Assembly: GCF_033473495.1 (NCBI RefSeq)
Contig: NC_088935.1
Location: 4,464,001 to 4,528,000, forward strand
From: Cercospora beticola
Lineage: Eukaryota; Ascomycota; Dothideomycetes; Mycosphaerellales; Mycosphaerellaceae
Length of the DNA: 64,000 nucleotides
Reading direction: 5' to 3'
Each line of letters starts with the position of its first letter. The stretch's first letter is position 1. Shown here one piece after another: positions 57,373-63,379 of the stretch. Under the pieces are notes generated by a model. The model saw only the letters and a list, made by a program, of their open reading frames with translations, was not told where the DNA came from and did not search any database. The translations under genes were made by a program, and so were the position numbers.

Positions 57373-58410
57373 TCACAGCGATAAGCTATAGAGATAGCAA
57401 TCTGAGGTCGGTGCTCGCATCTCTAGCGCCTCACTGCCCTCTCGCACGATTGAGGAAGCGTCTCTGGGAAGCATTAGCACGGAGCCTGGACTGTTTTGAA
57501 TGAACGGTCTGACCATATACTCCCTCGGCTCCTGGCCGCCGTTGGCTTCGAAGGCGAGAGCGAATTCATCGATTCCCGCTTGTATGCCCTCTGCTACACT
57601 GCAATCTTCCCATCGCATCATCAGCCTTTTCTGTTGTCGGATTGCTATCGGGCCCATTTCGCACAGCCTGGATACCCACTCGTCGACGGTCTGGTCAAGA
57701 CCATCCGCGTCCTGCACGACCTCTTCAACGAGTCCCCACTCTTTTGCCTGAAGGCCATTGATAATCTCAGCCAAATAGAGCAGCCGGCGTGTCCGCCCAA
57801 ATCCAATCAACTGTGGCAGCAATGCTGCCTCGACAACGCTGGGGATTCCCACCCGAACTTCTGGCATTCCGAAGTGCGATTCTTGTGTCGCGACCCGCAG
57901 ATCGCAGGATACCATGATTTCGAGGCCCGCGCCGAGCGAGAAGCCGTCCACACGGGCGATGACAGGGACTGGGAGATCTCGCAGTGCTTGGCACGCCTTG
58001 TGCACTCCGGTGATGAAGGTTCGGGCGTCTTCTGGACTGGATAAAGAACACATCTCCTTGATATCTGCTCCTCCAATGAAGGATGGACTTTTGCCTTCTG
58101 CAGTGGGACCCCCAGTGAGAACCACAGCGCGTAAATCTTGGTCTTTGCTCAGTTCTTCGCAGGTTGTGGTTAGTTGTGAGAGAATGGAGCTGTTAACAAT
58201 GTTCATCTTCTTCGGATTGTTGATGGACAGTGTTGCCACGCGTCTGTCTTTTTCAAATTGGCACTGTATTCCATTGCTGATATCAGATGAGGTCGAATAC
58301 AGGTTACGACATCTTCGGCGTGTGTTGTGAAATGGTTGCCAAAGCCCAGCATCGCAACCAAGCACGCGATGAGTTCTGGCTAGCCGCAACAGCTGCGAAT
58401 TTCTGTACAT
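57373..58410 (-). CDS. Enoyl-CoA hydratase/isomerase family protein, mitochondrial-type N terminus
   Basis: Single exon, 345 aa. Crotonase-fold protein. The basic start MYRNSQLLRLARTHRVLG and following Arg-rich stretch look like a mitochondrial presequence of about 40 residues. The fold motifs are present: FIGGADIKEM forms the oxyanion hole, and both glutamates used by hydratases appear to be retained, one in GAGLEIMVSCDLRVA and one in GMPEVRVGIPSVVEAALLP. The C-terminal tail is about 25 residues longer than the core and has no SKL-type peroxisomal signal. It could be a beta-oxidation or branched-chain amino-acid hydratase; the sequence does not decide. Divergent from the FDH-like gene by 490 bp. 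Confidence 0.88.
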   Translation of the reverse strand: MYRNSQLLRLARTHRVLGCDAGLWQPFHNTRRRCRNLYSTSSDISNGIQCQFEKDRRVATLSINNPKKMNIVNSSILSQLTTTCEELSKDQDLRAVVLTGGPTAEGKSPSFIGGADIKEMCSLSSPEDARTFITGVHKACQALRDLPVPVIARVDGFSLGAGLEIMVSCDLRVATQESHFGMPEVRVGIPSVVEAALLPQLIGFGRTRRLLYLAEIINGLQAKEWGLVEEVVQDADGLDQTVDEWVSRLCEMGPIAIRQQKRLMMRWEDCSVAEGIQAGIDEFALAFEANGGQEPREYMVRPFIQNSPGSVLMLPRDASSIVREGSEALEMRAPTSDCYLYSLSL

Positions 58411-60835: not shown

Positions 60836-61376
60836 TCAGTCGTCCTCGTTCGTAAGGACACGCGTCGAAATAATCTTGATCTCCTCTTCAGGTCTGTCTT
60901 CAGCACCAGTCTTAACGAGGCCCAACTTCTGCACCGTGCGCATCCCATTCTTGACGCGCCCGAAAATCGTGTGCTTGCCATCCAGCCACGGAGTCGGAGC
61001 CAAAGTGATAAAGAACTGAGAGCCATTGGTATTTGGTCCGGAGTTTGCCATAGACAGTACGCCAGCACCAGTGTGCTTTAGGTCAGAACGAATCTCATCT
61101 TCGAATTTCTCGCCCCAGATGGAGCTTCCCCCTCGTCCTGTGCCTGTGGGGTCGCCACCTTGGATCTGTGTACTGAGGTTAGTTTTCGTATCTGGTAAGA
61201 AGTGTATACGGGACACGTACCATGAAATCGGGAATGACACGATGGAAAATGGTATTGTCGTAGTAATGTCTGGAGCAGAGCGTTGCGAAATTTTCGCAGG
61301 TGCGTGGCGCATGTTGTGTGTACAACTCGAGGGTCACAGAACCCAACGAGGTCTCCAGTAGTACAGTCTGCGCCAT
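60836..61376 (-). CDS. Cyclophilin peptidyl-prolyl isomerase, PPIL1 type
   Basis: Exons 61376..61221 and 61165..60836 on the reverse strand, 161 aa. Small cyclophilin of the PPIL1/Cyp1 class (about 160-166 aa), in other species a spliceosome component activated by SKIP/Prp45. Start [19 protein letters not shown], then the catalytic Arg in [12 protein letters not shown], the [16 protein letters not shown] loop, [16 protein letters not shown] and the W in [13 protein letters not shown]. All main active-site residues (R, F, Q, W, H) are present. No targeting signal, so cytosol/nucleus. The phase-0 intron falls between the Met and Val/Ile of FMxQ. Tail-to-tail with the FDH-like gene. Confidence 0.94.
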
Positions 61377-61642: not shown

Positions 61643-63379
61643 TCAAGAATTCAGTACTTTGGTCTTCATCCACTCGCTCGTTCCGACACCCAAGTTGAGA
61701 CCGTTTCTCGCCCACCATCTTCGCACTTCCATGCCACGTTCTCCTTCGTAGCCGTCTTCGAGCGCTTCTTCGACATCGCAAGTCTTGTACTCTACCTTGA
61801 GACCGGACGTTTTCCACCACTCAAGAACATCCACATTCCCACTCTTCGTTGCACCAACCAGGACCTGGTTGTCAAAAATCATTTTAGAACCTTTGACTTC
61901 ATGCCAAAGCTGGAGAATTTCCACATGGCCGTGAGTGGACGCTAACTTCGACACAGTGTCCTCATGGGGAAATGCGATCCCACTGTATAGCCACCAACGC
62001 ACCACCTCCGTATGACCATTCTGTGTAGCATAGCAGATGCTTTTGCCAGGCTTCAGCCGGACCTTGGAGGAATCAACACTGACACTTGAGTCGTCCACTG
62101 CTGTCGACTGTGCCTTCCACCAGTCCAGCACAGAGATGTGGCCCTGGCTGCTCGCTTGCTCAAGTGCTGCCTCGGTGAACTTCAGGGGCAAGCCGGAATG
62201 CTGCCACCACTCCAAAATATTGACGAATCCTGCTCGAGATGCTCCATCCAAGGCTTCGCAATTGTATTCTTTGGTGAGGAACGAAGGCGATGTCCTCCAA
62301 AACTCGAGTATCTCTGTCCTGCCGAAAACGGAAGAGGCTTTGTCAGGCAAGAAAGTATGGCCGAAGGTTGCCCAGAAGAGGTCGGTGTGATTGGTCTCGA
62401 GATGTACCAGCAAATCAGTCATGGCGAATCGCATAATGAGCTTGATACAAAGTTTCGAAAGCCAGCGTGGAACACTGTGCGTCGCTACGAAGTGCTTGAC
62501 ATCGGCGAGATTGCCTCGCAGAAGGGTTAACTCAAGGGCCTCCATATAGTTGCGCGGTCCCTGCGGGCTGGTATGAGACGTCCATTCTGCGGGCGGTTTC
62601 AAATTTGTGTAGATGTGCAATGTCTGAGCTAGCTCCCAATCGCCTGTATAATCGATGATCATGGTCCACAATTCGGGAGGCAGCATGCTGCCAGCCTGCT
62701 TTGACGCCGGAGTGAAGCATGACTTATGGTGTGGCGACACATCGAGCCCAGCGCCAATGTTCATCAAGTCCACCTGGTTGCGAACGGCTTCGACCAACTC
62801 ATCTGCAGCATCCCACGAAATCAGACGCTTTTGCTCGTCGACGAAGGCCCACAACATGGGTTGTAGCACCTGCACCCAATTCCACTTCTTGCGAATCTTG
62901 GTGAGCTGCTTCTTGGTCATGGGATTTTCCCACATAGGTGAAGTCATGCCCGGCAGCAGCAAGATCTTCTTGGACACGTCCCAACTCCTCAGAACCTCTA
63001 ACACCAGGTTGTCTGTATGCCCATGCAGCATCTTGGCTAGGTTGTTGGCATCAAGTGGAGCGAGCACTAATAAATCCGCCCACTGGCACAGCTCGGGAGC
63101 TTCTTGCTCAATCTCCGCTGCACCGCGCGCGGCGGTCTGCCGAGCGAGGTTCGACATGGTCAGACATGATGTCGAGGCATGGAAGAAGTCCTCACTGGAG
63201 AACGCAGGGTCGAGGATGGCTCGGAGCGAGACATCGGAGAGATCTGCGAGAAGAGGTATCAGGTCCTGCACGATCTTGCGGTCGGCCACGCCAACGGAAG
63301 CAAAGATGACGTTCAGCGGGCGCGTGCTATTCAGGACGGTGCGATTGAGGCGTGCATGTTCGTCAGGTTCGTTGGGCAT
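61643..63379 (-). CDS. PPCDC/Hal3-like flavoprotein + F-box-like + ankyrin-like repeat fusion
   Basis: Single exon, 578 aa. Residues ~21-205 form a flavoprotein (HFCD) domain like phosphopantothenoylcysteine decarboxylase: VIFASVGVADRK start, QWADLLVLAPLDANNLAKM (99-117), DNLVLEVLRSWD (123-134) and PGMTSPMWENP (143-153). The decarboxylase residues are altered: the His normally seven residues before the AD of WAD is Ala94, the Asn of PxMNxxMW is Thr146, and the Cys-Gly clamp segment is missing. FMN binding may persist; catalysis is unlikely. Residues 231-254 (SMLPPELWTMIIDY...) look F-box-like. From ~280 on there are seven or so ankyrin-like repeats with a V-L-x-W-W-x-x-S-G-L signature. Function unknown; possible scaffold or ubiquitin-ligase adaptor. 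Confidence 0.8.
   Translation of the reverse strand: MPNEPDEHARLNRTVLNSTRPLNVIFASVGVADRKIVQDLIPLLADLSDVSLRAILDPAFSSEDFFHASTSCLTMSNLARQTAARGAAEIEQEAPELCQWADLLVLAPLDANNLAKMLHGHTDNLVLEVLRSWDVSKKILLLPGMTSPMWENPMTKKQLTKIRKKWNWVQVLQPMLWAFVDEQKRLISWDAADELVEAVRNQVDLMNIGAGLDVSPHHKSCFTPASKQAGSMLPPELWTMIIDYTGDWELAQTLHIYTNLKPPAEWTSHTSPQGPRNYMEALELTLLRGNLADVKHFVATHSVPRWLSKLCIKLIMRFAMTDLLVHLETNHTDLFWATFGHTFLPDKASSVFGRTEILEFWRTSPSFLTKEYNCEALDGASRAGFVNILEWWQHSGLPLKFTEAALEQASSQGHISVLDWWKAQSTAVDDSSVSVDSSKVRLKPGKSICYATQNGHTEVVRWWLYSGIAFPHEDTVSKLASTHGHVEILQLWHEVKGSKMIFDNQVLVGATKSGNVDVLEWWKTSGLKVEYKTCDVEEALEDGYEGERGMEVRRWWARNGLNLGVGTSEWMKTKVLNS

What the first reader, a model, noticed from the sequence alone, without database searches (positions are those of the whole stretch)
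61643..63379. Pseudo-PPCDC flavoprotein fused to F-box-like and ankyrin-like repeats
Seen in the sequence: one uninterrupted 578-aa frame joins a flavoprotein domain of the PPCDC/Hal3 family to an LPPELW F-box-like helix and a series of ankyrin-like repeats with a recurrent W-W-x-x-S-G pattern. By alignment from memory with PPCDC, the catalytic His is Ala94, the substrate Asn of PxMNxxMW is Thr146, and the Cys-containing clamp is absent, while the FMN-side motifs (APLDANNLAK, DNL, MWENP) are kept. In yeast, Hal3/Vhs3/Cab3 already show that this fold moonlights (Ppz1 inhibition, split active site). A dead flavin domain joined to substrate-binding repeats and a possible SCF-binding helix suggests a flavin-sensing adaptor, an architecture I do not know to have been described.
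Basis: partly seen in the sequence, partly recalled or inferred. Interest (0 to 1): 0.75.

Follow-up and report, generated by a model that had tools for sequence, protein, structure and literature searches.

The report
Dead CoA enzyme fused to ankyrins
A Cercospora-like fungus carries a protein in which a coenzyme-A-making enzyme fold that has lost its catalytic residues is joined to a protein-binding ankyrin-repeat arm, so the enzyme fold has probably been reused as a non-catalytic scaffold.

Summary

The fusion is old. Complete fusions are many in Dothideomycetes; a partial lecanoromycete record runs into the ankyrin half; named sordariomycete and leotiomycete records hold the dead domain and the junction motif but stop before the ankyrins. 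Fused rows form one clade (100/100) in a tree of the ankyrin half. That half also exists without the flavoprotein, with a weak SAP-like N-terminus (Agaricomycetes, a morel) or none (Mixia, Rhodotorula).

Best reading: a non-catalytic PPCDC fold serving as binding or oligomerisation base for an ankyrin adaptor. Partner, flavin binding and oligomeric state are untested. The papers searched do not describe this architecture.

The parts
61643..63379 (-). single-frame gene, 578 aa, pseudo-PPCDC / ankyrin fusion protein
62759..63322 (-). PPCDC/Hal3-fold (Flavoprotein) domain, residues 20-207
63098..63100 (-). Ala94, in the place of the catalytic His
   Evidence: of 140 family rows 130 A, 3 T, 1 V, 1 I, 1 E, 4 gaps, 0 H
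62942..62944 (-). Thr146, in the place of the substrate Asn of PxMNxxMW
   Evidence: 133 S, 6 T, 1 gap, 0 N of 140
62981..63049 (-). alpha4/alpha5 segment, residues 111-133 (matches the trimer interface of AtHal3), with HGH at 119-121
   Evidence: interface from PMC6168597
62876..62929 (-). basic helix segment ENPMTKKQLTKIRKKWNW, residues 151-168, best-conserved stretch of the domain
   Evidence: mean majority fraction 0.88 over 23 hand-picked rows; net charge +5
62687..62758 (-). disordered linker, residues 208-231
   Evidence: pLDDT under 50 at 210-231
62582..62683 (-). LPPELW...DWELAQTL motif, two helices (F-box-like helix 1), residues 233-266
61706..62548 (-). ankyrin-repeat solenoid, about 9-10 helix pairs by the model, residues 278-558
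61646..61705 (-). conserved C-terminus, residues 559-578

Best explanation
The gene encodes a pseudoenzyme adaptor. Its N-terminal domain is a PPCDC fold that lost its catalytic His, Asn and Cys; its C-terminal half is an ankyrin solenoid older than the fusion. Shown: the fusion, the loss of catalytic residues in the family rows examined, the separate complete PPCDC gene, one clade of fused proteins, and stronger conservation of the alpha4/alpha5 region and a basic helix than of the first FMN loop. Inferred: the dead domain acts as a protein-binding or oligomerisation base (on itself, on the canonical PPCDC or on another partner) and presents the ankyrin arm to a client, taking the N-terminal place that a SAP-like module holds in basidiomycete and morel relatives. 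Ligand, partner and client are unknown.
For: Catalytic residues absent in 140 family rows, a few of them gapped there. Separate PPCDC in the same genome with HIELRRW, PAMNTAMW and LACGD aligned to solved PPCDCs. 112 of 139 motif-bearing relatives are fusions through to the C-terminal signature; 108 of 140 rows, window included, are 551-669 aa long. Flavoprotein plus junction motif in Nemania (Sordariomycetes), Blumeria (Leotiomycetes) and Polycauliona (Lecanoromycetes), the last running 108 residues further into the ankyrin half. Fused clade 29 of 44 rows, support 100/100. C-half relatives without the flavoprotein in Basidiomycota and Morchella, SAP-like match in 26 of 51 at E<=1. Conservation: basic helix 0.88, segments 103-150 0.76-0.82, first FMN loop 0.53.
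Against: No interaction, expression or oligomer data. The position that forms the three-fold core in Hal3 (AtHal3 L117, ScHal3 L405) is polar, charged or Gly in 117 of 140 rows (H 72, D 16, G 9, N 8, Q 4, S 4, E 4) and is His121 here; L405E abolished the ScHal3 homotrimer and its FMN, though L117E was tolerated in AtHal3 (PMC6168597). So trimer formation in this lineage is doubtful. The Nemania and Blumeria records hold only 44 and 51 residues after the junction motif and no ankyrin repeats, so the ankyrin half in those classes rests at best on unnamed records. The place of Morchella rests on one long-branched sequence.
Confidence: 0.6

Rival explanations
1. Flavin-sensing adaptor: the dead domain still binds FMN and its redox or occupancy state controls the ankyrin arm.
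For: Of 140 rows the Pro of PLDAN is kept in 134, Asp (human-type PLDAN) in 133, Asn in 108, and the Gly of the first loop in 123; fold match to FMN-bound Hal3.
Against: The Ser of GSVA is kept in only 4 of 140. Polycauliona (SCMQAD) and two unnamed rows (VLGAD) lose the phosphate-side motif while keeping the basic helix; Pleopsidium, the other named lecanoromycete, keeps APVDTN.
Confidence: 0.12
2. Regulatory subunit of the canonical PPCDC: the dead domain enters mixed trimers and lowers or anchors CoA synthesis, much as Hal3/Cab3 mix in yeast.
For: Yeast precedent of mixed trimers (PMC9604783); alpha4/alpha5 well kept; a complete partner is encoded.
Against: It can donate neither His nor Asn/Cys; the core position is polar here; residues 113-133 share only 9 of 21 with the own PPCDC.
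Confidence: 0.14
3. Hal3-like regulator of the phosphatase Ppz.
For: Hal3 H378A still binds and inhibits Ppz1 (PMC9604783), so a dead site is no obstacle; counting from the catalytic His, ScHal3 I446 and W452, needed for Ppz1 binding, fall on window I162 and W168 in the best-kept segment (counting only; ScHal3 itself was not aligned).
Against: BxxxxV[ST]F-type motif found in 0 of 140 rows, some of them truncated at the N-terminus; no acidic tail; the own canonical PPCDC also has a Trp in that segment.
Confidence: 0.09
4. SCF substrate receptor: an F-box-like helix binds Skp1 and the ankyrins bind substrate.
For: Conserved LPxE..I motif; hhalign score 23.9 against at most 15.9 in 200 shuffles; 3 of 51 basidiomycete-type relatives hit PF12937 weakly, best E 0.023.
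Against: No Pfam F-box hit in 43 of 43 fusions; matches 26 columns only, below each of 30 F-boxes of the genome (34-65; these were the 30 best-scoring of 151 places); two main helices, not three.
Confidence: 0.05

Closest known systems
PPCDC / AtHal3a / human PPCDC (PF02441 Flavoprotein)
   Different: His, Asn and Cys lost; first FMN loop mostly replaced; ankyrin half added
Yeast Hal3/Vhs3/Cab3
   Same: PPCDC fold with a non-standard role and incomplete catalytic sets (PMC9604783)
   Different: Hal3 keeps the His and Cab3 the Asn and Cys, while the rows examined here keep none; no Ppz1 motif found, no acidic tail; ankyrin arm instead
Basidiomycete and morel ~400-480-aa ankyrin proteins with SAP-like N-terminus
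   Same: LPxE...DWEL motif, WW ankyrin repeats, EEALED/EAALED C-terminal part
   Different: no flavoprotein domain
F-box/ankyrin proteins (recalled as a class)
   Same: LPPEL helix before ankyrin repeats
   Different: no complete F-box detected

Membership tests
PPCDC enzyme | PPCDC (Flavoprotein) fold | tested here: met
PPCDC enzyme | catalytic His (His90 of AtHal3a) | tested here: not met
   Ala94; 0 of 140 rows have His, 4 gapped
PPCDC enzyme | Asn of PxMNxxMW | tested here: not met
   Thr146; 0 of 140 rows have Asn, 1 gapped
PPCDC enzyme | redox Cys in the ACGD clamp | tested here: not met
   0 of 140 at that column, 6 gapped, alignment loose there; clamp motif absent in the window
PPCDC enzyme | FMN binding | not testable with these tools
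   first loop mostly changed, PLDAN kept
PPCDC enzyme | homotrimer | tested here: inconclusive
   loop Gly kept in 137 of 140, hydrophobic core residue replaced in 117 of 140 by polar, charged or Gly; no multimer model run
Hal3-type Ppz1 inhibitor | BBxxxVTF / BxxxxVSF N-terminal motif | tested here: not met
   0 of 140 rows, some N-terminally truncated; absent in the complete window protein
Hal3-type Ppz1 inhibitor | acidic C-terminal tail | tested here: not met
   last 60 residues 18% D/E
Hal3-type Ppz1 inhibitor | binding to Ppz | not testable with these tools
   needs experiment
F-box | profile match over the whole F-box | tested here: not met
   no Pfam hit at E<=10 in 43 of 43; hhalign match over 26 columns only
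F-box | three-helix fold | tested here: inconclusive
   model of residues 226-345, pLDDT 90.6, shows two helices and a 3-residue turn before the ankyrins; no fold match
F-box | Skp1 binding | not testable with these tools
   needs experiment
Ankyrin repeat protein | tandem helix-pair repeats with ankyrin fold | tested here: met

The most novel reading that the evidence does not exclude
A dead PPCDC replaced a SAP-like module at the head of an ancient Dikarya ankyrin protein early in leotiomyceta evolution and now inserts into, or competes with, the canonical PPCDC trimer, tying coenzyme A supply to whatever the ankyrin arm binds. In the window's lineage the His-Gly-His at the three-fold position (119-121) could make assembly depend on metal or pH.
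Probability: 0.1. Interest if true: 0.75.

Novelty: new variant of a known kind. Interest (0 to 1): 0.5.

Why it matters
Papers on fungal Hal3/PPCDC proteins describe the protein of Eurotiomycetes, Dothideomycetes and Sordariomycetes as reduced to the PPCDC domain (PMC6695811, passage) or mention a second related gene in Neurospora (PMC9604783, section read). This family adds a PPCDC-fold protein with none of the three catalytic residues, fused to ankyrins and kept in more than one class, with source names such as 'flavoprotein' or 'related to SIS2'. Those labels may mislead CoA-pathway and salt-tolerance annotation. It offers a defined pseudoenzyme for asking what selects for a dead metabolic fold over long evolutionary time.

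Tried and rejected

Limits of the counts. One search listed 120 of 713 hits; the half searches could only return shorter proteins, so many of their rows are truncated. No named Eurotiomycete appeared in the rows listed, which is not evidence of absence. The 140 family rows are the window plus 139 of 245 fetched proteins, chosen by a MWENPMTKKQ-like motif that lies next to the Asn column, so canonical PPCDCs are left out by design; P0143, the one canonical hit, served as reference. Flavoprotein-bearing relatives with a variant motif (P0156, P0170, P0173, P0182) were left out of the counts; all four show Ser at the Asn column in the alignment, and of the two that reach the His column P0173 has Ala and P0182 has no His. 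The F-box control used the 30 best-scoring of 151 places, so weaker real F-boxes might score nearer to the family.

Full report
WHAT IS THERE. The frame at 61643-63379 (minus strand) is 578 codons from ATG to stop without interruption; the open frame is 587 aa. The window is G000:C1:4464001-4528000 of an unnamed 36.07-Mb, 10-contig genome. The best database match is 94% identical over the whole length and comes from Cercospora berteroae (Dothideomycetes), so the genome is probably a Cercospora or close kin. The 15 other frames scanned in the window gave ordinary fungal families, mostly housekeeping.

THE ACTIVE SITE IS GONE. Roles of the residues are from a review (PMC9604783; sections 3 and 5 and part 1 of section 4 read): His90 and Asn142 (with Met145) of AtHal3a for the first step, Cys175 for the second. 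I aligned the window protein and relatives with the genome's own PPCDC and the canonical P0143. Of 140 family rows (window plus 139 fetched relatives chosen by a MWENPMTKKQ-like motif), the His column holds 130 A, 3 T, 1 V, 1 I, 1 E and 4 gaps; the Asn column 133 S, 6 T and 1 gap; the Cys column no Cys and 6 gaps, with a loose alignment there. The window has Ala94, Thr146 and no clamp. Unlike Hal3 (His donor) and Cab3 (Asn and Cys donor), it could complete neither half of a split site.

A SEPARATE, COMPLETE PPCDC EXISTS. PF02441 finds two places in the genome: this gene and C4:4097626-4098291 (E 2.4e-32). The latter lies in a 347-aa frame with HIELRRW, PAMNTAMW and LACGDKGGGAM, aligned motif for motif with human PPCDC and AtHal3 (E 4.5e-34 and 8.4e-33).

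HOW OLD AND HOW WIDE. The full-length search found 713 proteins at E <= 0.001 and listed 120; those listed rows that bear organism names are Dothideomycetes as far as I recall their genera. Of 139 fetched relatives with the motif, 125 carry the LPxE...DWE junction and 112 run through to the EEALED C-terminal signature. A search with the flavoprotein half, limited by the tool's length window to about 109-348 aa, found 23 proteins, including Glonium, Nemania, Blumeria, Pleopsidium, Polycauliona and one canonical PPCDC. Nemania (Sordariomycetes), Blumeria (Leotiomycetes) and Polycauliona (Lecanoromycetes) reach the junction motif; only Polycauliona goes well into the ankyrin half (108 residues), while the other two end 44 and 51 residues after it without repeats. 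Whether they are mis-annotated or truly short is open. Two unnamed records, P0159 and P0162, carry the flavoprotein end, the junction and the complete ankyrin half of a divergent type. The Glonium and Pleopsidium records are partial and hold the flavoprotein part only.

A search with the ankyrin half, again limited to shorter proteins, found 106. Among them are ~400-aa proteins of Agaricomycetes (for example Coprinopsis) and one of Morchella with a SAP-like N-terminus, and proteins of Mixia and Rhodotorula that begin near the LPPEL motif. Pfam SAP matches 26 of 51 such relatives at E <= 1, best 2e-4, so the SAP call is weak. In a tree of the ankyrin half (44 rows, 351 columns) a clade of 29 (100/100) holds the 18 rows scored as fused and 11 others: 8 truncated rows with flavoprotein remnants and 3 that begin after the junction and cannot be judged. 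Morchella is next, on a long branch that the program warns about, then Basidiomycota. The tree is midpoint-rooted; timing of the fusion is inference.

WHAT IS CONSERVED. Over 23 hand-picked diverse rows including the window, the mean majority fraction is 0.88 for residues 151-168 (ENPMTKKQLTKIRKKWNW, net charge +5), 0.80 for 103-112, 0.77 for 113-133, 0.82 for 134-142, 0.76 for 143-150, but 0.53 for the first FMN loop 22-34 and 0.37 for 35-47. On the FMN side, of 140 rows the first-loop Gly is kept in 123 but its Ser in 4; the Pro, Asp and Asn of PLDAN in 134, 133 and 108. In AtHal3 helices alpha4 and alpha5 form much of the trimer interface (PMC6168597; passages, one section), which matches window ~111-133. 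The loop Gly there is kept in 137 of 140. The next residue, usually Leu or Ile in PPCDCs, is His in 72, Asp in 16, Gly in 9, Asn in 8, and Ile or Met in 12 of 140; the named rows with Ile or Met include Nemania, Blumeria, Polycauliona, Pleopsidium, Glonium and Cryomyces. The ScHal3 change L405E at that place abolished homotrimers and FMN retention, while AtHal3 L117E did not. So whether the window's lineage trimerises is open.

THE F-BOX CLAIM. No F-box family matches any of 43 fusions at E <= 10. A profile of 127 non-redundant motif segments (of 185, fusions and basidiomycete-type relatives together) against the 30 best F-boxes of the genome aligns 26 columns with score 23.9 and probability 70%; 200 column shuffles reach at most 15.9, single real F-boxes against the rest score 34-65, and half against half 84. 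A separate model of residues 226-345 (pLDDT 90.6) has two helices and a short turn before the ankyrins and no fold match. I read this as a conserved F-box-helix-1-like motif, not a demonstrated F-box.

MECHANISM. The simplest account is a pseudoenzyme: a PPCDC fold kept for its surfaces, linked flexibly to a client-binding ankyrin arm. Flavin sensing, PPCDC regulation, Ppz regulation and SCF action are rivals; none has direct evidence. The Ppz1-inhibition motif was found in 0 of 140 rows, some of them truncated at the N-terminus. By counting from the His, ScHal3 I446 and W452 (Ppz1-binding residues) fall on window I162 and W168, which is only suggestive because ScHal3 itself was not aligned.

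LITERATURE. Ten searches of the held open-access library were run. Those aimed at this architecture (PPCDC+ankyrin+fungi; flavoprotein/ankyrin repeat/F-box/Cercospora, at least three of four; SAP domain+ankyrin+fungal+F-box; Hal3+ankyrin+Aspergillus; SIS2+flavoprotein+ankyrin; pseudoenzyme+PPCDC) returned no paper on it: searches gave none, and one search gave 41, of which the 15 listed looked unrelated by title. Subscription papers are mostly not covered.

Noticed in passing
L001 1204-2247 (G000:C4): The genome's complete PPCDC frame starts with a hydrophobic, membrane-like N-terminal stretch and has an insert of about 24 residues (225-248) before PAMN relative to human PPCDC; an upstream start codon or an unspliced intron could explain either.
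   Followed up: no
61643-63379, residues 119-121: His-Gly-His at the place of the Hal3 trimer core; the first His is kept in 114 of 140 rows, the second in 72 of 140.
   Followed up: partly
proteins P0188, P0210, P0232: Ankyrin proteins of unnamed sources with many WW-SGL-KY repeats, resembling those of giant viruses (resemblance recalled, not tested), share the WWxxSG repeat style with this family.
   Followed up: no
60836-61312: Frame with a cyclophilin domain directly downstream of the gene, same strand; further on an enoyl-CoA hydratase at 57373-58410.
   Followed up: no
L035 1354-2286: Separate SAP protein, Tho1/CIP29-like by recall, found weakly with the basidiomycete SAP-ankyrin query.
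   Followed up: partly
proteins P0134 (Nemania) and P0137 (Blumeria): Records that hold the dead PPCDC domain and the junction motif but end 44 and 51 residues later without ankyrin repeats: truncated gene models or real short forms.
   Followed up: no
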